Shown one piece after another: positions 2,840 to 60,404 of a stretch of DNA of 64,000 bases. Each line of letters opens with the position of its first letter. Positions within the stretch are counted from its first letter, which is position 1. The stretch is from Gambelia wislizenii (lineage: Eukaryota > Chordata > Lepidosauria > Squamata > Crotaphytidae), in assembly GCA_030847615.1 (NCBI GenBank), contig JAUMIR010000001.1:444780687-444844686 (forward strand), given 5' to 3'. The notes beneath the pieces were generated by a model. It did no database searches. It was given only the letters and a program-made list of their open reading frames with translations, and had not been told where the DNA came from. The translations under genes were made by a program, and so were the position numbers.

Positions 2840-3461
2840 AAGATTTCCAGAGGGGAACAAAAAAAGTGTTCCCCTCTCACAGTCTCCTCTCCCACCCCTC
2901 TCCTGTCCCTGTAACAACAGAATTTCCCCCCCTAGACCTACCTTGTTCACACGTCCTTCCCTCGGCAGGGCAGCCCAGGAGTGAAAGGTGCTCGAACGGA
3001 GCCCCTTTTACTTCCTGGATTGAAATCCCGGCTGCTCTCGTGAGAAGACCAGAGCACTGGAAATCCAAAAATAAAAAGCAATATAAGAAAAAAGAAAAAA
3101 GAAAGTTACACGAAGCACCTAAACACACTTAAAGCATTACAAGTAACCCAGGGAAGGTACAAAAAAGTGTGTCACCTACCTTGATGTCCCAATCTCACCT
3201 GGAAGTGTTCTGGCATGGACCGCCCATTGACACTGGCATCACGCCAACATAACGGGGCACCATTTCAATCGCACGTCATTCCATTACAGAAACAGAATGG
3301 GGGGTCAATTCACAGCTTAGCCCGTGAATAAAAAGAAGCACTAGTGTAACGAAAGCCTAACAGGAGCATGATGACACAGGAATGAGAACGTCTGAAAGGG
3401 AAGCCCTTTAGTGATCTCCTGGCATCGGTATCACACCATATTTAGCCCATCTGAAAATCTC
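2840..3461. mobile_element. MITE with GAGATTATCAGA-type ends, 600-bp subfamily (degenerate copy)
   Basis: Same subfamily as 51620-52210 and 57445-58030. Shared blocks in the same order: AACAAAAAAAGTGTTCC near the left end, CCCAGGAGTGAA, TTCCTGGATTGAAATCC, GTGAGAAGA, then TACAAAAAAGTGTGTCACC, AAGTGTTCTGGCATGGACC and a right end CATCTGAAAATCTC. The left terminus is worn (AAGATTTCCAGA). Flanks CTTAG (2835-2839) and TTTAG (3462-3466) fit a 5-bp target duplication with one change. No transposase; mobilised in trans. Confidence 0.7.
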
Positions 3462-3466
3462 TTTAG

Positions 3467-4049
3467 TCACAATTGTAACACTAATGGCATGATCATACCA
3501 CCACCACCCAATTTACTGGGCATCAGTTGCACAGGGAGAAGGAGGTCCATTCTGCCATTGATTGGATCATGAGTGAATAATGTTTCCATCAGGTTGGGGG
3601 GTGGGTCAGGATCCATTTGGTTACTTAGTTACTTAATACTGTATACTTAAGTAAGGACTCATCTACATGCTGGTGTATCCTGCCCGTGGATCAGGCACAT
3701 TCCTCCCGTTACTTGGACAAAACAGGTCAGAGTCCAGACAGGCATGCTCGCCCATCCCTGCAACCACAGCTACCAGCTTCACCTGTATCCCACTCAAGGC
3801 CTTGGTCACATGCTATGGGCCCCCTTCCTGGATCCAGAAGAGCAAGGCAGTTGGCAGCTACAGTGATGAACTGGTGTGCTGGAATAGGCTCCTGCAGTGC
3901 CTGCTCCATTTTATTTTGGCTGGAACAGATTTGAACAGGCATATTCTTATAACATTTTATCGGGCCCTACCCCGTCTTAGCCCTGACTTTGCCCTGGAGG
4001 TCATGAGGACTGCCTGGGGTCCAAACAAGACAAAAGCCCTGCACTTTAT
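3467..4049. other. Unassigned interval
   Basis: Open frames of up to 136 codons occur on the plus strand from 3667, but their products show no recognisable domain. The interval runs into a LINE-like 3' end at 4050. I see no support for a gene. Confidence 0.4.
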
Positions 4050-4245
4050 ACCGATCTACACAAGTACATGGTTTTGAATTGCTTTATAGTATTTTAACTT
4101 GTCTTAATCTGTCTCCTTTTAAAACATTGTTTAACATGTTTTTAGCTTTTAACAGTCATTTTATTGTTTACGTTGTTTTAAACTGACTGTGTGGGTTTTA
4201 TTGTACTCCACCCTAAGATCTTTAGATAGAAGCAAATAAACCAAC
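4050..4245 (+). mobile_element. LINE 3' UTR of the CR1/L2 group
   Basis: T-rich UTR with repeated TTTTAAAACATTGTTTAAC-like words ending in TACTCCACCCTAAGATC and AGCAAATAAACC. This is a worn version of the sauropsid LINE terminus that normally reads GCCCTGAGATCTTCGGG and then ATAAATAAA. No ORF. Confidence 0.5.
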
Positions 4246-4249
4246 CAAG

Positions 4250-5330
4250 AGGACGTTATTGCTAGCTGTCATTCTTCTCCCTGTGTTGCAGAGTCTCATA
4301 TTCAGTTGATGTTGTCTATCCTGTCCAGGCCTAAAGGTGAAATGGCTAGAAATATTAAAGAGGTAAAATAAAACATGACATATGACCCTTTCTACTACAT
4401 GGCTGAAATCACATCACTGGAATTGGGCTTTGACTCTCAGAAATTCAATTTTGCTCAATCCAATGTTCCCTTTGAGCCTATGTCAGCAGCATTAGTCAGA
4501 ATGGAAAAGGACACCAACCTTTGGAAACTGCAGTCCCCCAAAGCAAATTTGATGAAACAGAGCCAGTGGTTTCAATGGGCCTACTTTGGATTAAGTGGTT
4601 TGGTGGCTAAAGCTCAACTCATACTGTCAGCAGAAACTTGGAGGATATATTTCTAGAATTAGAATGAAAGCCAGCTCCTTTGAGGGGGAAAGATAACAGT
4701 CTTTCTTACAAAGTTTCCTCACTGAAATTGTTAGTAGATTTAATAGTGGGGAAACTGAGAGAAACATGGCAGAGCTCTGAATGCATGTTCATTTAGTCAT
4801 CATCCACTGGGTGGGGTGTTGCAAGAGATGGGGTTAAAGCTGTGTAGTTTAAATCGGTAAGGAGGCATGTGGGAATGACTCTTCAATGTGCTTTCTTTCC
4901 CATTTAAATTGTATTCCCGACAGCTCACCCACAGCTGTTTGGCAGGCTGGCAGGAGCATGATTTTAAATAGGGAAGACAGTGTCCTGGTTTGACTTTCTA
5001 ACATGCTATCATCCCAGCACAGACACAGAGCCAGTGATGTGGGGTGTGTGTGTCAGCTGTGTGTGTGCAGGTGTGTGGGTGTAGCAGATCTTGAACACTT
5101 GTGGTGAGCCACACAGAAAACCTTCAAGGACTGTGGGTTACCTACATAATGTGCCTCACTGTCAACTTTCTCCTTTTGCCTGTCTCCATTTCCTCCCCGT
5201 CTTCTTCTCTCTCTCTCCTTTCTCTTTCTTCTCCTTACTAACATGCTTTTTCTCTACCTTTCCATTAAAAATAGCTCTCAAGGCAGTGAACAGCATCACT
5301 AAAAACAAATTGGACAATAAAAACATAAAT
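4250..5330. other. Unassigned interval with a TG-rich tract
   Basis: A frame of 93 codons at 4375-4656 has no recognisable homology. TG-rich sequence at 5040-5080 and a CT-rich stretch at 5160-5240 are simple sequence. No gene supported. Confidence 0.4.
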
Positions 5331-5333
5331 ATA

Positions 5334-5612
5334 TCATCACCATCACTGGTGGCGCAGTGGTTAAATGCCAGTACTGCAAGTCACCACGTTGCAAGTTCAA
5401 TCCCAGAGGGCTCCAAGGTTCCCTCAGCCTTCCATCCTTTTGTAGGTCAGTAAAATGAGGACCCAGCTTGTGGGGGCAATTAGCTAACACACATTGGAAG
5501 CTGCTTAATGCAGTGTAGATGTGTAAATTGCTATTGCTTAAAACAGTTTGTAAGCAGCTCTGATAGCCTTGTGGCTGAAGAGCAGGGTATAAATAAATAA
5601 ATAAATAACCAT
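5334..5612 (+). mobile_element. tRNA-derived SINE, nearly full length, alternative 3' tail
   Basis: Starts CTGGTGGCGCAGTGGTTAAA (A-box region), then GTTGCAAGTTCAATCCC (B-box region). The body GTAAAATGAGGACCCAGCTT, GGGGGCAATTAGCTAAC matches the Sauria-type SINE at 590. The 3' part differs: GTAAGCAGCTCTGATAGCC, TTGTGGCTGAAGAGC and an (AAAT)n end. A second tail of this type lies at 47341-47491. No protein. Confidence 0.8.
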
Positions 5613-5619
5613 AAAACAA

Positions 5620-6180
5620 TAAAAAATTATTTTAAAAATCCAGCGGGGGAAACAATTACTAGACCAGTTACAAGAGATGTTTCCTCACAATTTTCCTAAA
5701 AGCAGAGAAAGTGGGAACTGATTATGAAAGAAATGGATTCAACGATCTGGGAGTAAGACAAGAGGAAGTCCTTTCCTATTTGCCTATCAAGTGGGTCATC
5801 ACATGTGATGGTGTTCTCAAGAGGGCCACTTCCATTCCTTCCAACTATCCTGATTTAGCAGGGATAGTCCCAAGTAATCCTCTGTTGTCCCACTCTTTCA
5901 GCTGCTTTTAAAATGTCCTAGTTTCTCAATCCCCCTTCCCTTTTCTTGTTTTGGCCTCAGCTTACTTCAATTGCTGCAAACTGAATTCAAAATGCAAAAG
6001 TAATTTGCAATCAGCCAACTCAGCAAGGGGAAAGAAGGATGGGAGAATTTTGCCCTTCGCAACAGGTTATGGAAAAAGCAAACTGCTGCAGCCTCTTCTA
6101 GCTTGTGTACTTCTCCATTCATAATCGTGCCATCTTGACCACACTCTGATGTTGCTTGGCCACACGTGTTCTAGTTTTCA
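5620..6180. other. Unassigned interval
   Basis: No repeat end, RNA gene or protein domain recognised. A frame at 5711-5911 gives a product without known motifs. Confidence 0.4.
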
Positions 6181-6184
6181 TCTA

Positions 6185-6470
6185 AAATGTTGGAGGGTAT
6201 GCCACGTCTGAAATTTTTAACATCCAGGTAGGTTCATAACAAGGCAGGTGATCCCTTAGATAGCCAGGCTCCAAATCATTTAGGGCTGTCAAGTTTAAAA
6301 CCCTGAACTGGGCATGGAAAGTGATTGAAAACAAGGACAGGCCTTTTAAGTATGGAGGTAACATGGTCCATATATCATGCAGCAGTTAGTAGCTTAGCTG
6401 CTGCCTTTTGCACAGAGTGAAGTTCAAGAGTAGGCTTATGTGCAGTGTGTTGGAGAATCCCAGCATTCTC
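6185..6470 (-). mobile_element. CR1/L2-group LINE 3' region, reverse strand
   Basis: Carries, in the order expected of this repeat, TAGCCAGGCTCCAAATCATTT, AGGGCTGTCAAGTTTAAAACC, CCTGAACTGGGCATGGAAAG, GGTAACATGGTCC and GCTGCCTTTTGCACAGAGTG. These are worn forms of a common sauropsid LINE UTR. The same element seems to resume at 7255-7790; a Tigger-like MITE and other sequence lie between. Confidence 0.55.
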
Positions 6471-6858
6471 TCCCCGACCCCCTTGCTGTTAGGGCAATTG
6501 GGGGTTTAGGTAGAACAGGACTCCTGCATGTTAAACCCTTCTGGGGTTCTTTCCTCATCTAAAGCCTCAACATTTGCTTTTCCTATCTTTGGCAATGCAT
6601 GATCCAAAATAATTTTGTAACCAATTGGACCATGTGGGCCAGGACACTTCCTTGGGCCATTGAATCACCCCTTTGTATTATCTCTATGATACTAATTCTT
6701 TGATACTCTGATTCTTTCCTGCTCTTCAGCCAAACTTTGCTTCTTTAACAAACGATGGTGAGTTATGAGATGAAGCTACTATCTTTTACCCAATGTTTTT
6801 ATTAGGTAGTTAGGCTGTAGCCCCTCTACATGTATATGTAAATGTGAAACCATTAGTA

Positions 6859-7093
6859 CAGTAGGACCCTCTTATCCACTGGTGATCAGTTCTGAGGGGA
6901 CATGGATACCGAAAACCATCAATAATAGTGAACACCATTGAAAATCATGGGATTTCCAGTTTAAAATACCATAGAGTTGCCTTGGAGGACCTAGAAAATG
7001 GCTAGAAAGGACACATTTTCTAGGAAGATTCTGGTAGGTGTGCTGTTTTGTGTCTTGTGGATAATTGAATCAGTGGATATGGGGGCCCTATGG
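6859..7093. mobile_element. Tigger/pogo-like MITE, copy 1 of 3
   Basis: Left end CAGTAGGACCCTCTTATCC and right end GTGGATATGGGGGCCCTATGG are inverted versions of each other, and TA lies on both sides (6857-6858 and 7094-7095), as expected for Tc1/mariner-type insertion. The end sequence resembles the MER2/Tigger group. 235 bp, no ORF. Other copies at 36932-37151 and 58515-58712. Confidence 0.75.
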
Positions 7094-7254
7094 TAAACCT
7101 TTTCTAAGTTTGTTGCCTGCCTAGTTGGTTTTTGACTCTGTTTCAGTTCTCAGGGAAGCATCACCACTTTATCTGCTACTCTGCTAAAAAGAAGGCTGAT
7201 TCTTAACACTTTCAGTTTCCATAGTTTCTCAAAAAGAGTTAACACTCTGGGACA

Positions 7255-7790
7255 TTCTTAGTTCCCAACACAGTGCACTGCAGTAGTCAAACCACAAAGT
7301 AATGTTTGACTTGGAAAAAGTCATAGCTGGAACACTAAGTAGAACTGTGCAAAAACACTCCACATGGCTGCTGCCACCTCAGAGTCCAGTGCCAATGTGG
7401 AGGCATGAAATACTACACTTCCAGATTATGAACCTGACTTTTGAGAAGGAATACAATCCATCTAGAAAAGGTTGAAGCACAATCTACAAACCAGACTTTC
7501 AGCGGATTATCATGACCTCTATTTTGCAGGATGTATTTTCAACTTGTTCACCCTCATCCCACCCATTATCAAACTCAGGTAAGGTTCAAGCATATCCACT
7601 GCTTCCTTGGTGTTAGATGAGAAAGAGCAATAAAACTGAGTGTTGTCAACATATTGGTCACACGGGGCACAGTGTAGAACCCTGTGGGCCATCATATGCC
7701 AAATTCATGGAGTCAGACAGTGATTCCCCCAGCACCACTTTGTAGGTATGACTTGACAGGAAGCATCAGAGCATATCATTATATTTAATG
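7255..7790 (-). mobile_element. Continuation of the reverse-strand CR1/L2-group LINE 3' region
   Basis: Contains CAGTGCACTGCAGTAGTC, TTTTCAACTTGTTCACCCTC, ACTGAGTGTTGTCAACATATT, GTAGAACCCTGTGGGCC and CCAGCACCACTTTGTAGG. These are degenerate but ordered forms of the widely repeated sauropsid LINE region whose intact version ends in a GCGGGATATAAAT-type tail. Heavily mutated; no reading frame remains. Confidence 0.5.
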
Positions 7791-13379: not shown

Positions 13380-14660
13380 CCCAACAATTATCGTCCAGTT
13401 AGTCTGACATCAATACCAGGGAATATTCTAGAGCAGATCATTAAACAGAGAGTCTGTGAACATTTAGAAGGCAATGCCATAATCACAAAAAGTAAACATG
13501 GGTTTCATGCCAGACTAATCTGATCTTTTTTTGGGGGGGGGGGGATACAGTTACCAGCTTGGTAGAGGAAGGGAATGCTGTGGATATTGCATACCTTGAT
13601 TTCAGTAAGGCCTTTGACAAGGTTCTGCATGGCATTCTTGCAAACAAGCTTGTAAAATGTGGGCTAGGCAAGTTAACTGTTAAATGGATTTGTAATTGGT
13701 TGGCTGGCCAAACCCAAAGGGTGCTCAGCAGTGGCTACTCTTCGTCTTGGAAAGATGTGACCAGTGGGGTGCCACAGGGTTCTGTCCTGGGCCCAGTGCT
13801 ATTCAACATCTTTATCAATGACTTGGATGAGGGAATTAGGGGCATACTTACCAAATTTGCAGATGACACCAAATTAGGAGGAGTAGCTAATACCCTAGAG
13901 GACAGGATCAAAATTCAAAATGACCTGAATAGACTTGTAGAAAGCTGGGCCAAAGCTAACAAAATGAAATTCAGTACGGAGAAATGTAAGGTACCACACT
14001 TAGGGCGGAAAAATGAAATGTATAGATATAGGTTGGGGGAGACCTGGCTGAATGTGAGAAAGGGATCTAGAAGTCCTAGTAGACCACAAGTTGAACATGA
14101 GTCAATAGTGTGATGTGGCAGCTAAAAAGGCCAATGTGATTTTGGGCTGCATCAATAGAAGTATAGTGTCTAGATCAAGGGAAGTCATAGTGCCACTCTA
14201 TTCTGCCTTGGTCAGGCCTCACCTAGAATACTGTGTCCAGTTCTGGGCACCACAATTCAAAAAGGATATTGACAAATTAGAGCGTGTCCAGAGGAGGGCG
14301 ACTAAAATGGTGAAAGGTCTGGAATCAATGCCTTATGGGGAAAGACTTAGGGAGCTGGGTATGTTTAGCCTGGAAAAAAGATGGTTAAGGGGTGATTTGA
14401 TAGCCCTGTTTAAGTATTTGAAGGGGTGTCACATTGAGGCTGGAGCAAGCTTGTTTTCTGCTGCTCCAGAGACTAGAACACGGAACAATGGATGCAAGCT
14501 CCAGGAACAGAGATTCCATCTCAACATTAGGAATAACTTTCTGACAGTAAGAGCTGTTTGGGAGTGGAACACACTCCCTCGGAGCATGGTGGGGTCTCTT
14601 TCCATGGAGGTCTTTAAACAGAGGCTGGATGGCCATCTGTCAGGGATGCTTTGGTCATGA
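13380..14660 (+). pseudogene. CR1 reverse transcriptase, broken ORF2
   Basis: Codes for RT fingers and palm: VDIAYLDFSKAFDKV (motif A with its catalytic Asp, about 13575-13620), SGVPQGSVLGPVLFNIFIND (motif B, 13763-13822) and FADDTKLGG (motif C, 13855-13882). The thumb and C-terminal part ([33 protein letters not shown]) follows in a second frame from 14115. The two frames are separated by a shift and stop near 14110. A G9 run at about 13530 marks another break upstream. The endonuclease domain is absent. Dead copy of the ORF2 that performs target-primed reverse transcription. Confidence 0.9.
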
Positions 14661-17114: not shown

Positions 17115-17633
17115 TGTCCCCCCAGTATAGGCTCACTGAGAGGTACCTGGCACCTGGGAGTGGACTAAGCCCAGGAGTAGCCAAACAGCCTAGAAACTAC
17201 ACAGCAGAATAGGGCTTGAAAAACAAAGGCTTCAGCTAGAAGGCTTTATCACTGCTCTGACCCACTTTCACCCACAATAAGAGGACTTACAAGCAGCAAG
17301 GTCCTTCTGGAGGCTTTATTTTCAGTTCCAGTACAAAACAAACACAGAATACATACAGCAAACCTCAATGGAGGCTTTATTTTCAGTTCCAGTACAAAAC
17401 AAACACAGAATACATACAGCAAACCTCAATAATGAATCCAACAGCAATTCTCCAAACACTCCTCAACACCAACCCACAACAGTAATTCATACAGAGTGTA
17501 TCTATATAGGAGTGTTTTGCTAGTCACCTTCTGCCTAGCTACAGCTGTGCACAAACCCACTTCAGCTGTACTAGCCTGTGGTCTGTTGTTCCAACATTTT
17601 CTCTCTGGACTTAAAATGGATATTATCCTGACA
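17115..17633 (-). repeat. 3' LTR of the copia provirus
   Basis: Plus-strand start TGTCCC and end CCTGACA give TG...CA termini. It aligns with 22905-23340 throughout (TATAGGCTCACTGAGAGGTAC, AGTTCCAGTACAAAACAAAC, ATTTTCTCTCTGGACTTAAA). It is longer than the other LTR mainly because of a 61-bp tandem duplication (17309-17430) and about 21 bp near 17550 that the 5' LTR lacks. Confidence 0.92.
17309..17430. repeat. 61-bp tandem duplication in the 3' LTR
   Basis: The unit starting GGAGGCTTTATTTTCAGTTC occurs at 17309-17369 and 17370-17430 without mismatch; the 5' LTR has one unit. The duplication therefore arose after integration. Confidence 0.95.
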
Positions 17634-17646
17634 ATCCCCTCCAAAA
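17634..17646 (-). promoter_or_regulatory. Polypurine tract of the copia provirus
   Basis: On the minus strand TTTGGAGGGGAT lies directly before the 3' LTR start TGTCAGG. The position and purine content fit the plus-strand DNA primer of LTR elements. Confidence 0.75.
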
Positions 17647-17649
17647 TGT

Positions 17650-18335
17650 TTGCAACTGACCATATGCATTACATACATTATACCACATACATGTTACATA
17701 GATTACACCGTCTTTGGTACATGCTATTAGACCAAGCATTTCTTGGTGTTTCTGACATGTTAATGCTTTTGTGAAAATGTCTGCAATGTTCTGCTCAGAC
17801 ATGCAATAATGCAACTTTATGATAGCTTCTTGCACCAGCAGTCTAACATTCATATAGCGGACTCCTATATATTTAGTCCTACTCCTTAGGTTTTCAGTCT
17901 TTGCCACTGCAATGCACGTTTGGGAGTCTTCACTGACTTTGATTGGTTGCTCACACTTTTCTCCCAGATCCACCAACAATTGCCTGAACCATAGTACTTC
18001 TCCTGATAGCTCTGAAAGAGCTGCAAACTCTGCTTCTGCAGTTGAGAGAGCTACCTTTGTCTGCTTTTTGGATTTCCATGCAATTACATTTTCTGCATGT
18101 TTTATTACCATATCAATTAGAGATTTCTTATCCCTTTCCTCTACAAATGAACTATCTGAATAGCATTCAATATAGTTCTGGCGTGTTCTTTGCAATTATT
18201 AGACACAGGTATCATGCACCTTTTAGATATCACACTACTCTTTTTAGTGCTATGCAATCATATATGCTAGGTTTTGACACTCTCCTACTTAACAAACCAA
18301 CTGCAAAGCTTACATCTGGTCTAGTGTCTTCCATT
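17650..18335 (-). pseudogene. copia RT end and RNase H
   Basis: Minus-strand translation first gives TRPDVSFAVGLLSR and KRVV-stop-YLKG (end of the RT region, 18330-18220), then in another frame the RNase H domain: CYSDSSFVEERDKKSLID, WKSKKQTKVALSTAEAEFAA, SEDSQTCIAVA, RTKYIGVRYMNVR and NIADIFTKAL. The acidic residues expected of RNase H (D in YSDSS, E in TAEAEF, D in EDSQ) can be seen. In life it removes the RNA template during reverse transcription in the element's particle. At least one frame shift and one stop; inactive. Confidence 0.88.
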
Positions 18336-21308: not shown

Positions 21309-21423
21309 CACAAGAGCAGCCAGACCCAGAAAAAACCACAGGAATGAAGAAGAAAAATAGCCACCCAAAGGGAAGGCATTTTTACCATAAATCAAAGGAG
21401 TCACAGACAGAATAGGGAAACTG

Positions 21424-21978
21424 ATGAGGAAACACAACCTCCAAACAATCTATAGACCAACGAAAAAAAAAATAATCCAAGAAATGCTACGCTCAGCGAA
21501 GGACAAAAGAGACCCTCTCACAGCTGCAGGAATTTACCACATACCATGCAGCTGTGGACAAGTTTACATAGGGACCACTAAATGCAGTGTGCAAACACGA
21601 ATCAAGGAACATGAGAGACACTGCAGACTGGGGCAGCCAGAAAAATCAGCAGTAGTAGAACATGTTATAAACCAACCTGGACACAAAATGCTATTTGAAA
21701 ACACAGAAATTCTAGACCAGGCCAACAACTATCATGTCAGAATGCACAGAGAAGCTATTGAAATCCACAAACACCTGGACAACTTCAACAGGAAAGAAGA
21801 AACCCTAAAAGTAAACAAAAGCTGGCTGCCAGTCCTAAAAAACACTAAAATCAAAACTCAGCACCTGCAAATGAACTCCACCCAGGGACAGGGGGATTTC
21901 CAGCAGATAATGGCCCATCAACCAACCATTAGCCAAACAGACACTAACGAGGCTTGCATTTCTATACCCAGAAACTAA
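21424..21978 (+). pseudogene. GIY-YIG endonuclease domain of the Penelope-like element
   Basis: Frame of 184 codons. Residues 36-65 hold AAGIYHIPCSCGQVYIGTT: the GIY and YIG halves with the CxC cysteines seen in Penelope nucleases, followed by QTRIKEHERHCRLG (catalytic Arg region) and VVEHVINQPGHKM. The frame ends past the domain in UTR-like sequence. In complete elements this domain follows an RT and nicks target DNA; here no RT is in front, so the piece cannot act alone. The domain itself is uninterrupted, which suggests a fairly young insertion. Confidence 0.88.
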
Positions 21979-25708: not shown

Positions 25709-25983
25709 TAAAATTTTCTCCAGACTTTACAGTGCAGAGATTTCATAAGAGAAAGACTATACACTGCCCAGGAAGGAGATTTTTGGCCTTGAAGGAAGTG
25801 TCACATCCCCCCTAAAACTTCCCAGTATTTTCTCTTCACTTGGTACTCTCCTAAGTTAAATAAACATCCATTTATTCTTTTTTAAAAAACAATGACAACA
25901 CACCTCTCTTCTAGTGTCTTTACATGATTCCAGTGCTTGTTGTGAAGTCTCTCTCTTGCTCTCTCCTGAGTCCAGTGTCTGAG

Positions 25984-26320
25984 GAGATTATCAGATGCAG
26001 GAGAATGCAGCAAAAAATAAAATAAAATAAAATAAAAATAAAAATAAATGTTCCCAACCACATCAGAAGAAGGGGAGGAGAACAGAAAGGGCAACCTTAC
26101 TAGATGCCCATGTCCTTTAGCCATTCCGGGGGTGTAGTGCTGCCATGGACAAGGCTCCATTTTCCTATTGATGGGAACAAGCCACTAATAAAATGGGACA
26201 CTTTACTCACGGCTGCGCTACAACCCAGGGATACTGAAGGATGATGTTGTCTGATAATCTTGCCCTTTCCTGTTCTTCTCACTATCTTCTGACGTGGTTT
26301 TTGCCATGTCTGATACCCTC
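25984..26320. mobile_element. MITE with GAGATTATCAGA ends, 310-bp subfamily
   Basis: Left end GAGATTATCAGATGC, right end CATGTCTGATACCCTC. Perfect 5-bp duplication CTGAG at 25979-25983 and 26321-26325. Inside each arm the terminal word recurs inverted (GATGTTGTCTGATAATC at about 26243-26259; its left partner is worn). An A-rich AAAATAAAAT tract (26010-26046) is inserted in the left arm. Related copies at 46477-46784 and 51051-51358. Confidence 0.8.
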
Positions 26321-26326
26321 CTGAGG

Positions 26327-27334: not shown

Positions 27335-28005
27335 CAGTAACTCTTTACCAGGGACCCCCTGTAAATATATTTTGTTGCCGTGGGCCCCCAAGGACTTTTT
27401 CAGACACATAAAAAGTGCTGCGGAGGGCTCGGGAGAGGTACATGCCTGTTTCGCGGCAGGAGGTCCTTTTTGGATGCCGCCGTCCCTCTCGCGTTACCCT
27501 CTGTGTTCCTTCCGTGTCGCATGGAAGGAAAAGGCACCACTTTTTATTCACAAAGAACTTCTGTGAGTAAAAAGTGGTGCCTTTTCCTTTCATGCGACAC
27601 GGAAGGAACACGGAGGGTAACGCGAGAGGGACGGCGGCGGCCAAAAAGGACCCCCTGCCGCGAAACAGGCACGTACCTCTCCCGAGCCTTCCGCAGCACT
27701 TTTTACGCATCTGAAATAGTCCCAAGACTTACCCCAATATCAAGAACAACAACAACAATACAATTACAGTACATAATCCATTAGACCTCCCCTCAGAGGC
27801 ACTGGAGTGGGGGGAAGACTTTTCTCCTGCTTCTTCCTGCAAATTTTTGGCTGGAGTGGATTGAACAGCAATACACAGGATAAGCCAGCCAGCCTTTGCC
27901 TTGGCTCCTGCCACATGAGCGGAACAGCCTTCAAGCCTTAGCAGACCACCTGTGAGGACATCAAGGACCCCTGGGAGTCCGTGGACCACAGGTTAAGAAC
28001 CACTG
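27335..28005. mobile_element. hAT-type MITE carrying a palindromic insertion
   Basis: Left end CAGTAACTCTTTACC, right end GGTTAAGAACCACTG. Flanks CCATAGAG and CTATAGAC agree at 6 of 8 positions, as expected of an old hAT duplication. Homologous to 15028-15372 (GACTTTTCTCCTGCTTCTTCC, AAGCCAGCCAGCC). The palindrome 27393-27721 lies inside. Confidence 0.8.
27393..27721. mobile_element. GC-rich 329-bp palindromic MITE
   Basis: Almost the whole element is one inverted repeat: GACTTTTTCAGACACATAAA at the left pairs with GCATCTGAAATAGTC at the right, and CTCTCGCGTTACCCTC recurs inverted as GAGGGTAACGCGAGAG. The centre is near 27555. Flanked by a perfect CCAAG duplication (27388-27392 and 27722-27726). 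The ends belong to the ATTATCAGA group. Apparent overlapping frames of 126 and 134 codons on the two strands are a by-product of the symmetry. Confidence 0.88.
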
Positions 28006-37179: not shown

Positions 37180-37773
37180 GACATTATCAGAGGCAGCAAA
37201 AACCATGGGATTACAATATCAGGGTAGCGCAAATGAGCCCCACTATCACAGGACATCATCATCTTTGCATTATTACTCCATGCTCCAGCCACAAAAGAAG
37301 GCATTCTTTCTCATTCATGGGACAAGCCATCAATGAATCATCAATAGATCTCTTTTCGCTCTATTGACTGGGTGTGGAACCACATCCTGTTGTAATCATG
37401 AGCTTACAGCATGAATGGGCAGTCCTCAGCGAGAAAACGTTCCCGTGAGAATGTGAAAATGAAGCACAGGACACTCTTCTCATGAACTGTCCCCTTTAGT
37501 CTGAACATTTTAAGGCTTGATTCAGTGCTTGTGTGTTCATTTACTTTGTTAATTAAGGGTTTTTTGGAGTTGTAAGCATGTTCATGCCTTCTCATGAGAA
37601 CCGCCAAAATCTCACCTGTTCTTAAAGTGCTAGTGATCATTGTGTGATCATTCCATGGCATTTCTGTTGCATGATTACAGTTATGTGTGATAATAAGTAT
37701 TATAATGCCACGATGTTCCTGCTATCTTCATTCGCAGAAATGCACTGTTTTTAGATGCTAGTCTGATAATGTC
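37180..37773. mobile_element. MITE with GACATTATCAGA ends, 595-bp subfamily, copy 1
   Basis: Left GACATTATCAGAGGCAGC, right GCTAGTCTGATAATGTC. Internal blocks shared in order with 59807-60404: GGCAGTCCTCAGCGAGAAAA, AATGAAGCACAGG, TTACTTTGTTAATTAAGG and TTCTCATGAGAACCGCC. Flanks TGTGG and CATGG are a possible worn 5-bp duplication. No ORF. Confidence 0.8.
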
Positions 37774-40709: not shown

Positions 40710-42768
40710 TTTATTATTATTATCTTTATTAGAATTTTTCCCATAATATATAAAACGACAAAGAAAACATAACATAACATAACATATCATAACATAACAT
40801 AGGCCCTAAGGCATAAAAACTAACCACCAAAAACATAAACATAAATATGAACATAATCAACTTCCATCATTCCATCTTCCTGTTGGGCTTTATAACTTCA
40901 AATAAATTCCTCACCATCAAATACCTACTAGATTTCCTCTTAGTTCAATTGTTTCTCTTTACTTCCCCTTATTAATTCTTTCTTCAACTATTACTCTGTT
41001 ACAACATCCAATTGTTTCCCCAGTATTCTTTCCATAATTTACTCATTTTTTCCCCAATCTTGTAAATCCTTCAATGTTTTCCCTTCATCTATTATAATGG
41101 ATAATTTATCCATCTTATACATTTCACAAAGCTTTTCTATCCATTCCTCTACGGTGGGAACTTCCTTCCCTTTCCATTTTTTTGCAATTACTAGTCTGGC
41201 GGCCGTAATCACATATAATAATACCTTTCTATATTTTCCCCTTATATCTCCGTCCACTCTATCCAACATATTTAGCAAATATATCTCTGGTTGTAGTGGG
41301 TACTCGATCTCTAATGTCCTGTTTAGTAGCCTATGAACCTTCCCCCCAATTTTTTTTATTTTCTTACATTCCCACCAAACATGGTAATATGTGCCTTTCG
41401 AGTTGCCACATTTCCAACAATTATTAGATATATTCTTATAAATCTTATTCAATTTTTCAGGTGTCATATACCACAAATTCATTATCTTATAGTAATTTTC
41501 TTGCAAATTATTACTTTTAGTAAATTTTATATTTTTACTCCACACTGTTTCCCACTGTTCTAATTGTATCTCATGACCCATAAATTGTGCCCACTTCACC
41601 ATATAATTCTTTATTACTTCCTTTTCTTGACTAAAGCCCAGTAAGAGTTTATATATTCTTGAAGTTATTTTCTTTTTCCCTTTGTCTTTCAATATCTGGT
41701 CAAATTCTGTTTGTTCACTTTCTATTCCATCTAGTTTCAAATCCATTTTAAATTTTTCCATTAATTGTCTGTGCAGAAACCAATGACATTCTATGCCCTC
41801 ATGCCTTAATTCTTCCTGCGTTTTCATTTTATATTGTACTCCATCTTTCTTTAGGATTTCCTCATACGTTAACCATTCTCCTTTAAATAAACTTTCCCTT
41901 TGATAAAACGCTTCATGGGTAGAAACCCATGTTGGTATCTTTGAGTAAATCCACCTTTTATATTTCTCCCAAACTCTCCATATAGCTTTTCTGACAAAAT
42001 GATGTCCAAACTCCTTATGTACCACCTCTTTCTTATACCAGATATAAGCATGGAATCCATATCTTAAATTAAACCCTTCTAACCGTAGCAGTCTCTTGTC
42101 TTTTAAATGTATCCATTCCGAGATCCAGTTTAGGCAACTTGCATTATAATATAATTCCAAATCTGGAAGTCCCAGTCCGCCCCTTTCCTTAGATTCCACT
42201 AATATTTGCCTCTTTATTCTTGGTTTTTTCCCAGCCCAGATAAATTTAGCCAAATCTTTGTTCCAATCTTTAAATATCACAGATGAAGATAGAATGGGAA
42301 TATTTTGAAATAAATACATCACTCTTGGAAGTACATTCATATTTACTGTTGCAATTCTTCCTAGTAAAGATAGTCTTAATTTCGTCCATCTCCTCAGATC
42401 TTCTTTAATTTCTCTCCATCCTTTAATATAATTATTCTTATACAGATCTATCTTTCTGTTTGTTATATTTATCCCTAAATATCTTCCCTTCTTTCCCATC
42501 TTGAAATTCGATATTTTCTCTAATGCATCTTCTTCATACTTAGACATATTTTTAGTTATTACTATTGTTTTTTCTTTATTAATTTTAAATCCAGCTAATT
42601 TCCCGTATTCCTCAATTGTTCTCACTAATTTATTGATACTCTCCTTCGGATTATCTAGAAAAAAGACAAGGTCACCCGCAAAGGCTTTATATTTAAATTC
42701 ACTTTTTTATACTTTCACTCCTCTAATCTCTGAATCATTATTGATTTTTCTATTAAGAATTCTTAATA
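40710..42768 (-). mobile_element. L1-clade LINE, 5'-truncated, in CR1
   Basis: GAGACCAGCTATTTT occurs at 40695-40709 and 42769-42783, a perfect 15-bp target duplication. The 3' end is at the left: minus strand ...AATAAAGATAATAATAATAA. 2.06 kb, reverse to the CR1 it interrupts. The 3' UTR is 40710-41038; the rest is ORF2. Confidence 0.92.
41039..42768 (-). pseudogene. L1-clade ORF2, RT palm end to C-terminus
   Basis: The frame opens in the RT: a stop after EIRGVKV, then FAGDLVFFLDNP where FADD is expected (one catalytic Asp reads Gly), TIEEYGKLAGFKINKEKT, YLGINITN, RIATVNMNVLPRVMYLFQNI, FIWAGKKPRIK, KERGGLGLPDLELYYNA. The C-terminal finger is CWKCGNSKGTYYHVWWECKK (about residues 408-427 of the 528-codon frame 42625-41039). 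That open frame is long and uninterrupted, so the copy is fairly young. Endonuclease and first RT motifs were lost by 5' truncation. Confidence 0.9.
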
Positions 42769-46458: not shown

Positions 46459-46476
46459 TAACTCAGTTCATAACAG

Positions 46477-46784
46477 GAGATTACCAGATGTGGGGAAACG
46501 TGGAAAAAAACCATGTCCCAAACCATGTCAGAAGAACATGACAAGAACAGAAAGGGCGACATTATCAGACACCCATGTCCCCAGCTGTTCACAGGGTATA
46601 GTGCTGGTGTGGACAAGGCTTCACTTTTGTATTGATGAGGCTAAGCTGCCAATATAAAGGGACACCTTATTCACGCCTGTGCTATGCCCCCGGAATGCCG
46701 AAGGACAACAATGTCTGATAATGCCACCCATTTCTGTTCTTGCCGTGTTCTTCTGATGTGGTTTTTGCCACGTCTGATAATCTC
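46477..46784. mobile_element. MITE with GAGATTATCAGA ends, 310-bp subfamily
   Basis: Left GAGATTACCAGATGTGG, right CCACGTCTGATAATCTC. Each arm of about 80 bp is inverted (AGAAGAACATGACAAGAACAG pairs with CTGTTCTTGCCGTGTTCTTCT) and ends in a second copy of the terminal word: GACATTATCAGACA at about 46559 and TGTCTGATAATGCC at about 46712. Flanks AACAG and CTTAG do not give a clear duplication. No ORF. Confidence 0.8.
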
Positions 46785-46789
46785 CTTAG

Positions 46790-50984: not shown

Positions 50985-51614
50985 TTATATTTGAAGGGAT
51001 GTCATACTGAGGATGAAGCAAGCTTGCTTTCTGCTGCTCCAGAGACTAGGGAGATTATCAGACACAGCAAAAATTGTGTCAGAAGATTACAACCAGAACG
51101 GGCTCCATTATCAGATGACATCATCCTTTGGTGTCCCTGGGGCATACCGTGGCTGTGAGTAAGGCATCTCTTTTTATTGGTGGCTTGTCCCTGTCAATGA
51201 AAAAGGAAAGCCTTGTGCATGGCAGTGCTACGGCTATGCTCTGGTAATGACTAAGGGCATGGTCGTCTGAGAATAACGTTCTTGCTGTTCCCATTGCATT
51301 CTTTTGATGTGGTTTGGAACACTTTTTTCCCCCATGTTTCACCATATCTGATAATCTCCAAGGACATGGAACAATAAACTCAAACTACAGGAAAAGAGAG
51401 TCCACCTAAACATTAGAAAGAACTTCCTGATAGCAAGAGCTGTTCAGCAGTGGAATGCAATGCCTTGGAGTGTGGTGGAGTCTCCTACTTTGAGGTTTTT
51501 AAACAGAAGCTGGATGGTCATTTGTCAGGAATGCTTTGATTGGGTATTCCTGCATGGCAGGGGGTTGGACTAGATGGCCCTTGTGGTCTCTTCCAACTCT
51601 GTGATTCTATGATT
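50985..51614 (+). pseudogene. CR1 3' end, split by a MITE
   Basis: ATTTGAAGGGATGTCATACTG and CTGCTGCTCCAGAGACTAG (to 51045), then after the MITE GACATGGAACAATAAACTC, CTAAACATTAGAAAGAACTT, AGCAGGGGGTTGGACTAGA-like terminus (51560) and ATTCTATGATTCT. Only the last ORF2 codons and the UTR. Confidence 0.85.
51051..51358. mobile_element. MITE with GAGATTATCAGA ends, 310-bp subfamily, in CR1
   Basis: Left GAGATTATCAGACACAGC, right CATATCTGATAATCTC, flanks CTAGG (51046-51050) and CAAGG (51359-51363). The CR1 is continuous outside these points, so the flanks are the target duplication with one change. An internal copy of the terminal word (CCATTATCAGATGAC) lies at about 51109. 308 bp. Confidence 0.88.
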
Positions 51615-51619
51615 CTAGG

Positions 51620-52210
51620 GAGATTATCAGACAGGAACAAAAAAAGTGTTCCTATCCCACAATCTCCTCTTCCGCCCCTGATCTGACCCTGTCCCGGCAC
51701 AGTAATAAAAATTTACAGACCTACCTTGAGTAGCATCAACAGGCAGCCCAGGAGTGAATGGAGCTCTAATGAAGCTCCGTTCACTTCCTGGAGTGAAATC
51801 CTACGGATTCTCATGAGAAGACATGAGTGCAGGAAATTCAAAAATAAAAACCCAAATAGAGCAAAAAAAAAAAAAAAAGTTGCTAAAAGCACATACACAC
51901 ACTTTAAAACTTCCAAGTAAACCAAGGAAGTTTTTAAAAAGTGTGTCACTTACCGGAGGTGTTTTGGTAGGGACCTCCCATTGATGCTGGGATCTCTCCA
52001 GCATAACAGAGCACCTTTTCACTTGCAAGAACATCCGCAATAGAACATCCAATCTATTGATGGCTTCTCCTATCAATAAAAAGCAGTGCTGACAGAACAG
52101 CAGCAGAACGGGTGCATTACAAGGGGAAAACAACGGCATCTGAAAAGGGAGCCTTTTAGCGGATCTCCTGGCATTTGTGTAACACCACTTTTAATGCACC
52201 TGATAATCTC
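51620..52210. mobile_element. MITE with GAGATTATCAGA ends, 600-bp subfamily, best copy
   Basis: Left GAGATTATCAGACAGGAAC, right CACCTGATAATCTC. Flanks CTAGG (51615-51619) and CTATG (52211-52215); the target was the CR1 tail TTCTATG, so CTATG is the original. Contains an A15 run at about 51864-51880. No ORF. Confidence 0.88.
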
Positions 52211-52215
52211 CTATG

Positions 52216-55644: not shown

Positions 55645-55912
55645 GACAGAACCCAGGACTAAACTGAGAGTATTAGACTTTGGACGTATCATGAGATGAC
55701 ATGGCTCATTGGAAAAGACAATAATGCTCATTAAAGTGAAAGGCAGTAGGAAAAGAAGAAAACACATTACACATGGATTGATTCAATCAAGGAAATCAGG
55801 GCCCTAAGTTTGCGAGAGCTGAGCACACCTGTTAATAACAGGGTGTCTTGGAGGTCTCTCATTCATGGAGTCACCATAAATTAAAACTGACTTGATGGCA
55901 TGTAACAACAAA
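55645..55912 (+). pseudogene. BovB-like RTE 3' end
   Basis: LDFGRIMR, HGSLEKTIMLIKVKGSRKRR, then IQSRKSGP-type codons in another frame, and the tail CACCTGTTAATAACAGGG, GGAGTCACCATAAATT, ATGGCATGTAACAACAAAC. Directly abuts the reversed CR1. Confidence 0.7.
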
Positions 55913-55949
55913 CATCGAGGCTTCTGCTTTCCATTCTTATGGCTCTTTG

Positions 55950-56819
55950 AAGATTATCACACCAGGTTTCTAATGTGCAGCAATTACATTAGTGAAGCAA
56001 ATGGAAGTATATCAGTATTGAAGCAATCCTTAGTGCACCTCCACTTCAATACCGGTATGTTTCGGTTTGCTTCACTAACGCAATTGCTGCACAATACCAG
56101 CAGGAGGGTGGGGGGGAAGAAAAGAGACAGATGGGGTGGGGGGAATAGTCAGATCATGCAAGTGTGGGAGAGAAGATGGCAGAAAGGTGTGTGTGGGGGG
56201 GAGAGATAGACCAGGCAAGAGGGAAAATAGTCAGATCAGGAAGGTGGGGGTGGGGGGAGAAGACCAGGCTGCAGAAGGGTGGGGAGAAGAAAAGAGATAG
56301 ATAGGCAGGAGTGGGAATATTCAGATTGGGCAGGCAGCAGAGGAAAAGACCAGGTGGCAGAAAGGTGGCGTGGGGAGAAAAGACACAGATTGGGCGGGAG
56401 GGGAAATAGTCAGATCAGGCAAGCAGAAGGGGGGGGGGAACAGGCAACAGAAAGTTTGTGGGGGGGGGAGAAAAGAGATAGATCAGGTGGGAGTGGGAAT
56501 AGTCAGCTCAGGCAGCAGAGGAGGTCAGAGAAACAAGGGGAAGAGAGAGAGAAGAGGACAAACATGCCCACTCACCCCCCACGTGATTGCTGGTATGGGA
56601 ACTGAAGCAGAAAAGTATGAAGTGCACAGAGGCAATAATGAAAACACAGTGCTATTGAAGGCTATTGATGGGTTTCGCCCATCAATAAAAAGGTGCCCTC
56701 CAGCAATGGTTTGAATGCAGACTGGCCACAGAACAGAAATGACATTGTGTGATAAGGAATGGTTGCATATGCTATTATCCTGCTCTAGTAGCGCTGGTAA
56801 AGCCTCATGCGATAATCTT
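55950..56819. mobile_element. 870-bp element with AAGATTATCACA ends and an internal minisatellite
   Basis: Left AAGATTATCACACCAGG, right GCCTCATGCGATAATCTT. Flanks CTTTG (55945-55949) and CTTTA (56820-56824) fit a 5-bp duplication. Near the left end is a hairpin (GTGCAGCAATTACATTAGTG pairs with CACTAACGCAATTGCTGCAC, 55975-56090). The middle is a purine-rich minisatellite. Ends resemble the ATTATCAGA group. Confidence 0.7.
56115..56565. repeat. Purine-rich minisatellite, about five units of 80-95 bp
   Basis: Units carry AAAAGAGATAGAT, CAGG, GGGAATAGTCAGATCAGGCA, GGCAGAAAGGT and G runs. Unit starts at about 56121, 56201, 56291, 56379 and 56473. One strand is almost free of pyrimidine runs. The apparent 108- and 114-codon frames here are repeat artefacts. 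Confidence 0.85.
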
Positions 56820-56824
56820 CTTTA

Positions 56825-57439
56825 TCTCTGAACCAGAATCAGTCTAGGCAGCGCTTTCATATAGAGGGCAGTCCTCTATGAGGTACAACACATAACCATG
56901 CTACTTTACTTACACAGGACCCTCCCAACAGAAACATTGCTTTTTAACACGGCCACATCCAGAATCCTCCAGCCAGCCTGGCAACCTGCCCCTCTGGCTG
57001 TGAGATTCTGGAAGTTGTAGAAAGTGACCTTTTCCTGTTCTGCAAGTACACTGTCCTATCTGCAATTTGGGATAATAGCAATCTCTATAACAAGGCTGTT
57101 AATGCTTAAATCTGTACATATCAAGTGAACGTTCTCAAGGTGGCAAGAAAATGTTCACAAAGTGCTTTAATACTTTAAAAAGCTATATTAATGCTTGTTA
57201 TTGTTATTTATTTAGGTGTTAAAATGTGCAGGGATGGCAGTGCCTTGAAAGCCACTCTTGAACCAAGTTAGCTTGGAGGACACAGCTGCACCTTGCCTTG
57301 TTGTGAACAGAGTTTAGCAACTGGTAAGTCACAACCTGACAGTCTGGCCACCATCTATGCAAGAATGAGGCATGTTCTCAGGCAAACAGACATGTTCTCT
57401 GGTTAACAGCATGGAAACTGTTGATTTGTAGAGTAGAAA
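56825..57439. other. Unassigned interval
   Basis: The piece at 56970-57050 (CAGCCAGCCTGGCAACC, GTGAGATTCTGGAAGTTG) resembles a MITE end. Nothing else recognised. Confidence 0.4.
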
Positions 57440-57444
57440 CTGTG

Positions 57445-58030
57445 GAGGTTATCAGACAGGAACAAAAAAAGTGTTCCCGTCCCACAATCTCCTCTCCTCT
57501 CCCTGTCCAGGCAGGGTAACTAAAAGTTTCAGACACACCTTATTCACATGTCCAGATCTGCCCAGGAGTGAATGGAGCTCTAACGGAGCTCCAGTCACTT
57601 CCTGGAATGAAATCCCGGCTGTTCTTGTGAGAAGACGAGAGTGCGGGAAATTAAAAAATAAAAAGCAAAATACAAGTCAAAAAGTTACACCAAGCACCTA
57701 AACTCACTTAAAACTTTACAAGTAAGCCAGGGAGGGTACAAAAAAGTGTGTCACTTACCTGGATGTCCCAATCTCACCAGGAAGTGTTCTGGCACGGACC
57801 TCCCATTGATGCTGGTATCGCGCCAGCTAAATGGGCATCTTGTCACTCACACAAACCTCTGTGACAGAAACAGAATTGGGGATCCATTGATGGCTAAGCC
57901 TGTCACTAAAAAGCAGTGCTGGCATAATGAGAGCCGAACAGGAGCATTATGAGAGGGGAACAACATCATGTGAAAGGGTAACGATGTCCTAGCGTAGCAA
58001 TAATGCCATATTTACAGCATCTGATAACTC
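57445..58030. mobile_element. MITE with GAGATTATCAGA-type ends, 600-bp subfamily
   Basis: Left GAGGTTATCAGACAGGAAC, right GCATCTGATAACTC, flanks CTGTG (57440-57444) and CTGTA (58031-58035). Same block order as 51620-52210 and 2840-3461; the best match of the three to the 2.8-kb copy (AAGTGTTCTGGCACGGACC, AAAAAGTGTGTCACTTACC). Confidence 0.85.
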
Positions 58031-58194
58031 CTGTAAATGGTCTTTGTGACTGGCAACACAAAAATTAAGGGAGCTGAAAAAATAAGGAAGCATATTTTTG
58101 CATGTTGTTACACTTGCAACATGAGTAGCTTTACATTCTCAGCCTCTCTCTTTTCACACTGGCTACAGAACCCCCGGGGTTTGTGCAGGAGACA

Positions 58195-58275
58195 GAATCA
58201 TAGAAGAGAATTTTAGAGATGGAAAGGACTACCCAGACCATCTAGTCCAACCCCCTGCCATGCAGGAATACACAA
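58195..58275 (-). mobile_element. CR1 3' tail fragment, reverse strand
   Basis: AGAATCATAGAAGAGAATTTT, ATCTAGTCCAACCCCCTGCC and ATGCAGGAATACACAAC, the reverse of the CR1 terminus. Confidence 0.8.
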
Positions 58276-58512
58276 CTAAATTCTTCTTATACAGAAGATT
58301 AGCCTCAGGTAGCCACCCTCCCAATTTTTGTCCTGAGACTTCTTTATGTGGGTTTAAATCACCACATCATATGAGGATGTGACTGAAATCCATTGAAATC
58401 TTTGCTATCCTTTCCCATCTACTGCTTGTGTTTATCAAAGGATGGTTATTAAGTGACAGGAAGGGTTTCCTAATTTGTTTTCAGTTACTTTGAATATGTA
58501 TCCAAAGGAAAG
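58276..58512. other. Unassigned interval
   Basis: No recognisable element. Confidence 0.4.
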
Positions 58513-58514
58513 TA

Positions 58515-58712
58515 CAGTTTAACCTCCATATCTGTGAGGGTTCCCAGATTTACCGTGAATAATAGCACACCCTATTAAAATAAAGGACTTTTGGTATAAA
58601 CATACCATTATGTTGTATTGGAGGACTTAGAAGTTGTATGTCCTTTTTTTTTTTCCAGTCATGGATAACTGAAACTGCAGATATTGGTTCCGTGGATACA
58701 AGGGTCCAACTG
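58515..58712. mobile_element. Tigger/pogo-like MITE, copy 3 of 3
   Basis: CAGTTTAACCTCCATATCTG at the left and GTGGATACAAGGGTCCAACTG at the right, with TA at 58513-58514 and 58713-58714. 198 bp, no ORF. Confidence 0.8.
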
Positions 58713-58714
58713 TA

Positions 58715-59801
58715 TCATATCTGCCATTGTGGTATAGTTCAAAGAATAGGCAAAGGTCCCTGCACAATGCCTTTTGAAATCTAGGTGCTATATGTGGCCA
58801 GGAGACATGAACATTTGATTTACAGAAGATGCTACAGGAGCCTGCTTGATACACATCCAGTTGTCAGTACCTTGAACCACATACCAAAAAATAATAATTT
58901 CTTCAGCAGTTGGGGATAGCTGACTATCCCCAGCACATTAGTTACACGCTTCTCTTGAGCCATAGCTCTTACATTTCATCACTAATACCTGCTTGTTGCT
59001 ATGGAAACTCTTAGGACAAGAAAGGGGAACTGATCTTCAACATAGTTTGGTCTGTGCTACAGTCACACAGGCCTTTGGCAAGGAGCTGCTTCATGACACC
59101 ACATTGATCCCTGCCATGCAAAAGCCCAGGGCACTGCTCATACAGATCTTCACACTTATATATCAAATTCTCACACTTATCTGACAGAAGGACTTCAGAT
59201 CTGAAAATTGGCAAGATCTCTCTGTTGGTTTCTTTCCACATAATGAGGAACAAAATGAGATGTGGGGATATATTTTAATGGAAGAATATTTCTAGAAATG
59301 TTAAGCAAACAAGCATGTTTTCAAGTAAACATGGTTGAACCATTCAACATGCAGGAAAATGCACTCCATGCCTAGCTAGCTAAAAGAGAGGTTTGACAAT
59401 GGGACATACCTCATAACCCTGTTCCTTGATATTTATTTCCCCGAGAAAAGGTCAAATTGTAAAAGACACAGACAAAGCTGCCATCACTCTGAACCTATTT
59501 CTTCTCTCTGCCTTGTAACTTCCAATGTGTGATGTGATACTTCCTTATGCCCACCTTGCACAATTGCCTAATGGTGCATCACATGTTGTTTGGGTGAGAT
59601 GACAAAAGAAAGGAGAGTCTAAGAGACCATGGTGTTCTGTTAGTTGGTGCTGTGTCTTTCAAGGTGTCTAGTTTGACCTTTACAAACTGTTCTGGATGTT
59701 GACTTAGGGTGGAACCCTATAGTCTATATCACTACATGTAAAAGAACTCAAATGATCTTTAAGAAAAGCAGTCTGACAAACCTCTTGTAGGCACGACCAG
59801 T
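58715..59801. other. Unassigned interval
   Basis: Frames up to 80 codons, no motifs. No repeat end recognised. Confidence 0.4.
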
Positions 59802-59806
59802 CCAAG

Positions 59807-60404
59807 GACATTATCAGATGTGGCAAAAATCACACTATTACAACATCATGGTAGCGCAAACAGGCCCCGCTATCACACTATGTCGTCATCTTCGTGTGGT
59901 TACTGTGTCCTCCAGCTGCGAAAAAGGCGTTGCTTCTAATTGACAGGACAAGCCATCAATAGATCTTCAATATCGGTGTTGTTGCTGGCATGCAAAACCA
60001 CATCCCATTATAATCGCAAGATTACAGCATAAATGGGCAGTCCTCAGCAAGAAAACATCTGGGTGAGAATGCAAAAATGAAGCACAGGTGCTCTTTTTAT
60101 GAACTGTCCTGTTAAGTTTTGACATTTTTAGGTTTGTTTCAGTGCTTGTGTGTTTATTTACTTTGTTAATTAAGGTGTTTTTGGAGTTTTAAGTGCACTT
60201 GTGTCTTCTCATGAGAACCGCCGAAATCTTGCCCATGTTGAATCACGAAAGTAAACTCCCGTTCTTAAAGTACATGCAATAATTCCGTGCTGGTTGTTTG
60301 CGCAATTACAGCAACATGCGATATTAAGTTTAATAATGCTACGATGTTTCAGTTATCCTCATTCACAGAATTACAACATTTTTAGATGCTCATCTGATAA
60401 TGTC
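59807..60404. mobile_element. MITE with GACATTATCAGA ends, 595-bp subfamily, best copy
   Basis: Left GACATTATCAGATGTGGC, right GCTCATCTGATAATGTC, perfect CCAAG duplication (59802-59806 and 60405-60409). Same blocks as 37180-37773 at nearly the same length (598 and 594 bp). No ORF. Confidence 0.9.

What the first reader, a model, noticed from the sequence alone, without database searches (positions are those of the whole stretch)
2840..60404. A group of size-diverse MITEs sharing ATTATCAGA termini and 5-bp target duplications
Seen directly: elements at 2840-3461, 25984-26320, 27393-27721, 37180-37773, 46477-46784, 51051-51358, 51620-52210, 57445-58030, 59807-60404 and probably 55950-56819 start with GA(G/C)ATTATCAGA or a close variant and end with its inverse. 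Flanks are CTGAG/CTGAG, CCAAG/CCAAG (twice), CTATG/CTAGG, CTAGG/CAAGG, CTGTG/CTGTA, CTTAG/TTTAG and CTTTG/CTTTA; for two copies the CR1 target confirms the boundary. Internal sequences define at least four subfamilies. Known superfamilies with 5-bp duplications (Transib, some hAT5-like) have other termini as far as I recall. Inference: one transposase family mobilised all of them, with a preferred target near CYNRG.
Basis: partly seen in the sequence, partly recalled or inferred. Interest (0 to 1): 0.78.

Follow-up and report, generated by a model that had tools for sequence, protein, structure and literature searches.

The report
Old PIF/Harbinger-type MITEs, 3-bp duplications
These are old, non-coding hitchhiker copies of a cut-and-paste DNA transposon, present in tens of thousands in what is probably a lizard or snake genome; they are real, but they duplicate 3 bases of target on insertion, not 5, which fits a known transposon superfamily.

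Summary
The ten elements are real. Each is one base longer at both ends than stated: the terminus is GGA(G/C)ATTATCAGA. The genome holds 53,512 exact GA(G/C)ATTATCAGA matches against 590 for the reversed-pattern control. The '5-bp duplication CYNRG' is a misparse. The outer G and C belong to the transposon, and the duplication is the inner 3 bp of a preferred C|NNN|G site. A 5-bp duplication would make G next to the terminus and C at -5 equally frequent over pooled ends; they are 85.6% and 60.4%. In 11 of 11 informative comparisons among 25 well-matched pairs the outer base follows the transposon (one is weak). An empty site agrees. Three-base duplication, GG termini and a target near A-G-W-C|TWA|G-W-C-T fit the PIF/Harbinger (PHIS) superfamily, near its NuwaII C|TNA|G group. 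Coding Harbinger elements of the same genome use the same site (C at the flank in 17 of 22). No transposase-bearing element with these termini was found in a partial search. The main subfamily's best copies are 88% like a rough consensus, so it is old. Verdict: new members of a known kind. The data answer, for this assemblage, a 3-versus-5-bp question left open in print for NuwaII.

The parts
2839..3462 (.). MITE, about 600-bp main subfamily; duplication TTA/TTA; termini decayed
   Evidence: 77% to the 12-copy consensus
25983..26321 (.). MITE, about 308-bp subfamily; duplication TGA/TGA
27392..27722 (.). MITE, palindromic subfamily (91.6% self-complementary); terminus GGACTTTTTCAGA; duplication CAA/CAA
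37179..37774 (.). MITE, GAC subfamily; flanking triplets GTG/ATG
46476..46785 (.). MITE, about 308-bp subfamily; flanking triplets ACA/TTA (no duplication recognisable); internal terminus-like motifs at 46558(+) and 46725(-)
51050..51359 (.).
51619..52211 (.). MITE, main subfamily; triplets TAG/TAT
55949..56820 (.). MITE with internal tandem repeats and variant terminus GAAGATTATCRCA; duplication TTT/TTT, outer bases G and A (3-bp reading)
57444..58031 (.). MITE, main subfamily; duplication TGT/TGT, outer bases G and A (3-bp reading)
59806..60405 (.). MITE, GAC subfamily; duplication CAA/CAA
60719..60888 (.). truncated copy of the palindromic subfamily (84% to 27392-27722), one end only (GGACATTTTCAGA)

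Best explanation
An old, extinct or decayed assemblage of non-autonomous PIF/Harbinger-superfamily (PHIS) elements. Shown: common termini GGA(G/C)ATTATCAGA...TCTGATAAT(C/G)TCC; a 3-bp target duplication; a palindromic target near A-G-W-C|TWA|G-W-C-T whose central triplet is duplicated; no Pfam domain above its cut-off in seven open frames of three subfamily consensuses; tens of thousands of matches genome-wide. Inferred: a PF13359-type DDE transposase of the superfamily (with, by analogy, a Myb-like partner protein) bound the shared termini, cut the elements out and inserted them across a 3-base stagger at C|NNN|G. Any DNA between two such ends could be carried, which explains the unrelated interiors and sizes.
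For: (1) 53,512 exact matches against a control of 590. (2) Pooled over both ends, a 5-bp duplication requires G at -1 and C at -5 to be equally frequent, whatever the target. Observed: 45,813 of 53,512 (85.6%) and 32,326 of 53,512 (60.4%). (3) Among 25 of 36 assembled pairs with at least 2 of 3 inner matches: where the left outer base was not C (6), the base after the element was C in 6 of 6 and never the outer base; where the right outer base was not G (5), the base before the element was G in 5 of 5. (4) Empty site: the nested element in L007 sits at CTTA^CC in related copies L043, L048 and L057, so the target's outer base is C, yet the element begins with G. (5) Target bases over 60 flanks of 30 elements: C at -4 in 46, A/T at -5 in 55, A at -7 in 35 (p = 5e-20, 1e-8, 3e-6 against window composition). 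(6) 22 distinct 5' ends of elements in PF13359-bearing loci of the same genome show the same signature: C at -4 in 17, A/T at -5 in 21, A at -7 in 16. (7) In print, most PHIS elements have 3-bp duplications, and NuwaII has mostly GG ends and a C|TNA|G target (PMC4482050).
Against: No element with these termini and a transposase was found; the coding Harbingers whose ends were seen have other termini. No consensus match lay in 47 transposase-bearing loci, while 27 of 28 MITE loci matched in the same run. The triplet is not strictly TNA (21 of 100) or TWA (14 of 100). In 3 of the 25 pairs (L046, L055, L056) the base before the element is A or T, not G, though the right outer base is G: substitutions on either reading. 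One of the 6 left-side cases (L056) is weak, since related repeats have C at that place. Of all 36 pairs, mispaired rows included, the outer base follows the transposon in 9 of 11 on each side and equals the target in 1 of 11.
Confidence: 0.85

Rival explanations
1. One reading: 5-bp target duplication (CYNRG) by a Transib- or hAT5-like transposase with unusual termini.
For: 3 of 10 window elements have perfect 5-mer matches; 5-mers match perfectly whenever the target happens to be CNNNG.
Against: Unequal frequencies of the two outer bases over 53,512 matches; 11 of 11 informative outer-base comparisons among 25 pairs follow the transposon; empty site of the nested L007 element.
Confidence: 0.03
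2. A different superfamily with 3-bp duplications (for example Zator, recalled) mobilised them, and the target resemblance to Harbinger is coincidence.
For: No autonomous parent found; the termini differ from those of the coding Harbingers seen.
Against: The same extended target (A.WC|NNN) at insertions of coding Harbingers in the same genome; 1,527 first-look PF13359 candidates point to a large resident Harbinger population.
Confidence: 0.1
3. Several related PIF/Harbinger lineages with similar termini each mobilised their own MITE subfamily, rather than one transposase for all.
For: Terminus variants (GGAG/GGAC, GGAGATTTTCACACC, GGACTTTTTCAGA, GAAGATTATCRCA) go with different interiors.
Against: The same 3-bp triplets and C|NNN|G preference in the subfamilies examined, and the same first 12 bases in most copies.
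Confidence: 0.35

Closest known systems
PHIS superfamily, NuwaII group (Han et al. 2015, PMC4482050; sections 5 and 8 and other passages read)
   Same: Mostly GG at the terminus, target C|NNN|G, and the 3-or-5-bp ambiguity; reported in a turtle among 12 species.
   Different: The triplet here is TNA in only 21 of 100; no transposase is tied to the elements; 53,512 terminus matches here against 7,564 copies reported for all NuwaII.
PIF/Harbinger group and its Tourist-like MITEs
   Same: 3-bp duplication; per-position consensus triplet T-W-A over 60 flanks; palindromic extended target, as recalled for plant PIF (CWCTTAGWG, recalled; a search for that string found no paper).
   Different: Strict TWA is a minority (TAA and TTA 14 of 100).
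Chompy MITEs of crocodilians (recalled; only one table row naming Chompy was seen, PMC7561263)
   Same: High-copy reptilian MITE families (recalled).
   Different: Terminal sequences could not be compared; Repbase and Dfam are not available here.

Membership tests
PIF/Harbinger-type (PHIS) non-autonomous element | 3-bp target duplication | tested here: met
PIF/Harbinger-type (PHIS) non-autonomous element | short terminal inverted repeats, first bases A/G or GG | tested here: met
   GGA(G/C)ATTATCAGA; expectation from PMC4482050
PIF/Harbinger-type (PHIS) non-autonomous element | termini shared with an element encoding a PF13359 DDE transposase | tested here: inconclusive
   none found, but the search is partial: 47 loci read of 1,527 first-look candidates, many too short to reach the ends. 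One search (30 loci, up to 2 mismatches) gave a 2-mismatch motif in 7 loci of one Harbinger family, one more in L035, and a 1-mismatch variant end in L017 1.4 kb past the domain; none was shown to be the end of a transposase-bearing element. One search (12 loci, 1 mismatch) gave none; no consensus match in 47 loci
NuwaII group | C|TNA|G target | tested here: inconclusive
   C|...|G preferred (46 of 60 flanks; 60.4% of matches), but TNA in 21 of 100 triplets
PIF/Harbinger group in the narrow sense | TWA duplication | tested here: inconclusive
   per-position consensus T-W-A (37, 48 and 35 of 60), but 14 of 100 triplets are TAA or TTA
Transib / hAT with 5-bp duplications | 5-bp target duplication | tested here: not met
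MITE | short, non-coding, high copy, terminal inverted repeats | tested here: met
   no Pfam domain above its cut-off in 7 open frames of three consensuses

The most novel reading that the evidence does not exclude
One PIF/Harbinger (NuwaII-like) transposase lineage, now lost, mobilised a whole community of MITEs with unrelated interiors through a shared 13-base terminus and an extended palindromic target (AGWC|TWA|GWCT). It left more than 50,000 recognisable terminus copies in one squamate genome and shows by count that C|TNA|G-type PHIS elements duplicate 3, not 5, bases.
Probability: 0.45. Interest if true: 0.5.

Novelty: new member of a known kind. Interest (0 to 1): 0.33.

Why it matters
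It corrects a false lead: a supposed 5-bp-duplication superfamily with unknown ends. It also gives a simple test: with pooled ends, a true n-bp duplication forces equal frequencies at its two outer positions. That test separates 3 from 5 bp where empty sites alone may not, an ambiguity stated in print for NuwaII (PMC4482050). It adds a large PIF/Harbinger-type MITE population and its target preference for a squamate-like genome that also holds young, near-identical coding Harbingers.

Tried and rejected
5-bp duplication: rejected. Resident young Harbingers as direct parents: the ends seen differ (GGGGCCGGTTACACGG, GGCCTCGGTTCCACGG, GGGGTCGGTTCCACGG, GGGGCGGTTTACACGG and similar), and none of the three subfamily consensuses matches the transposase-bearing loci (42 loci; repeated with 47 loci, where 27 of 28 MITE loci matched as a positive control). 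Terminal-repeat search around transposase loci: no GG...CC pair with a matching triplet worth keeping (12 loci, 11 of them). The longer elements L007 (1,196 bp) and L042 (1,759 bp) as remnants of the parent: no transposase was seen by eye in their translations. L007 holds a nested MITE; L042 carries a LINE 3' piece (by eye, resembling the LINE part of the frame) and large inverted halves. Open frames of the three consensuses: 7 scanned, two weak matches far below cut-off. The terminus variant GGAGATTTTCACACC could not be counted genome-wide (tool busy). Literature: Chompy is named in two papers of the library, one unrelated; of the other one table row was seen. A search for GAGATTATCAGA, TCTGATAATCTC and GACATTATCAGA found three papers, unrelated by title and start of abstract, so these termini were not found in print in this library. 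CTNAG with TSD appears only in PMC4482050. Of PMC10379679 and PMC11304231 passages were seen. All other papers were seen as search listings only. One search's 36 pairs include a few cross-pairings (for example L001 1500-1911, L048 300-2003, window 46558-46784); its result on all 36 is given under evidence against.
Full report
What is there. The window belongs to an unnamed 2.47-Gb genome (window = C1:444,780,687-444,844,686). All ten listed elements exist, and groups them into five kinds; a looser linking with fetched copies joins the main and GAC kinds. The termini are not chance. In the window, 10 exact matches to GGA[GC]ATTATCAGA stand against a mean of 0.0 in 5 single-base shuffles. In the genome, GA[GC]ATTATCAGA occurs 26,736 + 26,776 times against 283 + 307 for the reversed pattern. 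Some matches are not ends but internal copies of the motif, such as window 46558. A 608-base rough consensus of the main subfamily drew 16,159 first-look candidates; the 40 scored were 86-88% identical, nearly all end to end. The main subfamily is therefore large and old, with no young copies among the best matches. The other subfamilies were not searched genome-wide.

The duplication is 3 bp. That is also what a terminal G...C pair of the transposon would give. The two readings can be separated. If 5 bases are duplicated, then over pooled ends the base next to the terminus and the base five away are the same pair of target positions read from both sides, so G at -1 and C at -5 must be equally common. 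They are 45,813 of 53,512 (85.6%) and 32,326 of 53,512 (60.4%). Internal motif copies are mixed in and would dilute both figures; how many there are was not counted.

Copy by copy, 36 end pairs were assembled from the window and fetched loci, and 25 of them have at least 2 of 3 inner bases matching. In the 6 of 25 where the left outer base is not C, the base after the element is C all 6 times. In the 5 of 25 where the right outer base is not G, the base before the element is G all 5 times. One of the six (L056) is weak, because related repeats carry C there. In L046, L055 and L056 the base before the element is A or T although the right outer base is G; these are substitutions on either reading. 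With all 36, mispaired rows included, the figures are 9 of 11 on each side, with 1 of 11 equal to the target.

Empty sites were shown by joining flanks and finding related repeats without the insertion. The clearest is the element nested in L007: TTA is duplicated, related copies L043, L048 and L057 read CTTA^CC, and the inserted DNA begins with G, which is not the target's base there. L039 lies at the same site of another copy in the opposite orientation, so this site was hit at least twice.

Target. Over 60 flanks of 30 elements the outer base is C in 46, the next A/T in 55, and the base two further out A in 35; inside the duplication T, A/T and A lead with 37, 48 and 35 of 60. The site reads roughly A-G-W-C|TWA|G-W-C-T. 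As whole triplets, the first 100 listed sites with C at -5 give TAT 14, TAA 9, ATA 9; TNA 21 and TWA 14. The preference is therefore loose.

Which transposase. PF13359 (DDE_Tnp_4, the Harbinger nuclease family) has 1,527 first-look candidates in this genome; 150 were scored and all 150 exceeded the cut-off. Several families among the loci read are young, with copies agreeing at 99-100% over kilobases; others are 90-97% alike. At the 22 distinct 5' ends matched by the terminus strings of such elements, the flank shows the MITEs' signature: C at -4 in 17, A/T at -5 in 21, A at -7 in 16. Their termini differ from those of the MITEs. No element joining MITE termini to a transposase was found, but only 47 of the 1,527 candidate loci were read, many without their ends. 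One search did list the motif with 1-2 mismatches in nine places: seven inside one Harbinger family, one in L035, and a variant end in L017. The assignment to PIF/Harbinger (PHIS) thus rests on duplication length, terminus type and target, and is an inference.

Host. An intact 458-residue Harbinger-derived open frame (L065) has its 12 best matches at 85-91% identity. The 10 of these that carry a name are all squamates (Anolis, Varanus, Pogona twice, two geckos, Rhineura, Thamnophis, Phrynocephalus, Podarcis), and turtle and Alligator proteins follow at about 50% (best 120 of 715 listed). The genome is therefore probably a squamate (inference).

In print. Han et al. 2015 (PMC4482050; sections 5 and 8 and other passages read) define NuwaII elements by C|TNA|G targets and mostly GG ends, state that they could not judge 3 from 5 bp by empty sites but think 3 likelier, and count 7,564 copies in 12 species including one turtle. 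The present elements resemble this group closely, but membership stays open: the triplet is not strictly TNA and the transposase is unknown. Chompy MITEs of crocodilians are a recalled comparison that could not be tested.

Noticed in passing
L012-L014, L017, L018, L031; L023-L028; L064/L072; L073/L074: Several PIF/Harbinger families with copies 99-100% identical over about 2.7-6.4 kb (termini GGGGCCGGTTACACGG in the first group, GGCCTCGGTTCCACGG in the second); apparently recent activity in a reptile genome.
   Followed up: partly
L065:3595-4971 (-): Intact 458-aa Harbinger-derived open frame with 85-91% identical proteins across squamates; looks like a conserved, possibly domesticated host gene.
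   Followed up: partly
L066:3385-5181 (+): A Harbinger transposase frame runs on in frame into what looks like a LINE reverse transcriptase, apparently an insertion (by eye).
   Followed up: no
L007:1605-2183: A second MITE type (termini GGAGATTTTCACACC, TTA duplication) nested inside a MITE of the main type.
   Followed up: partly
L042:300-2060: A 1.76-kb MITE with these termini carrying a LINE 3' piece and large inverted halves; possible capture of other repeats (by eye).
   Followed up: no
window 61774-63462 (-), 41042-42706 (-), 13496-14110 (+), 21391-21975 (+), 17626-18195 (-): Retroelement pieces: three frames with PF00078 reverse transcriptase matches (the first two below its curated cut-off), and by eye a Penelope-like GIY-YIG frame and a Copia-like frame (no Pfam match).
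   Followed up: partly
C1:51734173, 51738723, 51743277: Three PF13359 matches about 4.55 kb apart in the same orientation, as if a Harbinger element were tandemly repeated.
   Followed up: no
main MITE consensus, reverse strand: Two splice-donor-like CAG/AAG-GTAAGT motifs inside the main subfamily, possibly relics of the parent's first exons (by eye).
   Followed up: no
window 46558 (+), 46725 (-), 26261 (-), 51104 (+): Internal terminus-like ATTATCAGA motifs inside the 308-bp subfamily, possibly extra transposase-binding sites.
   Followed up: no
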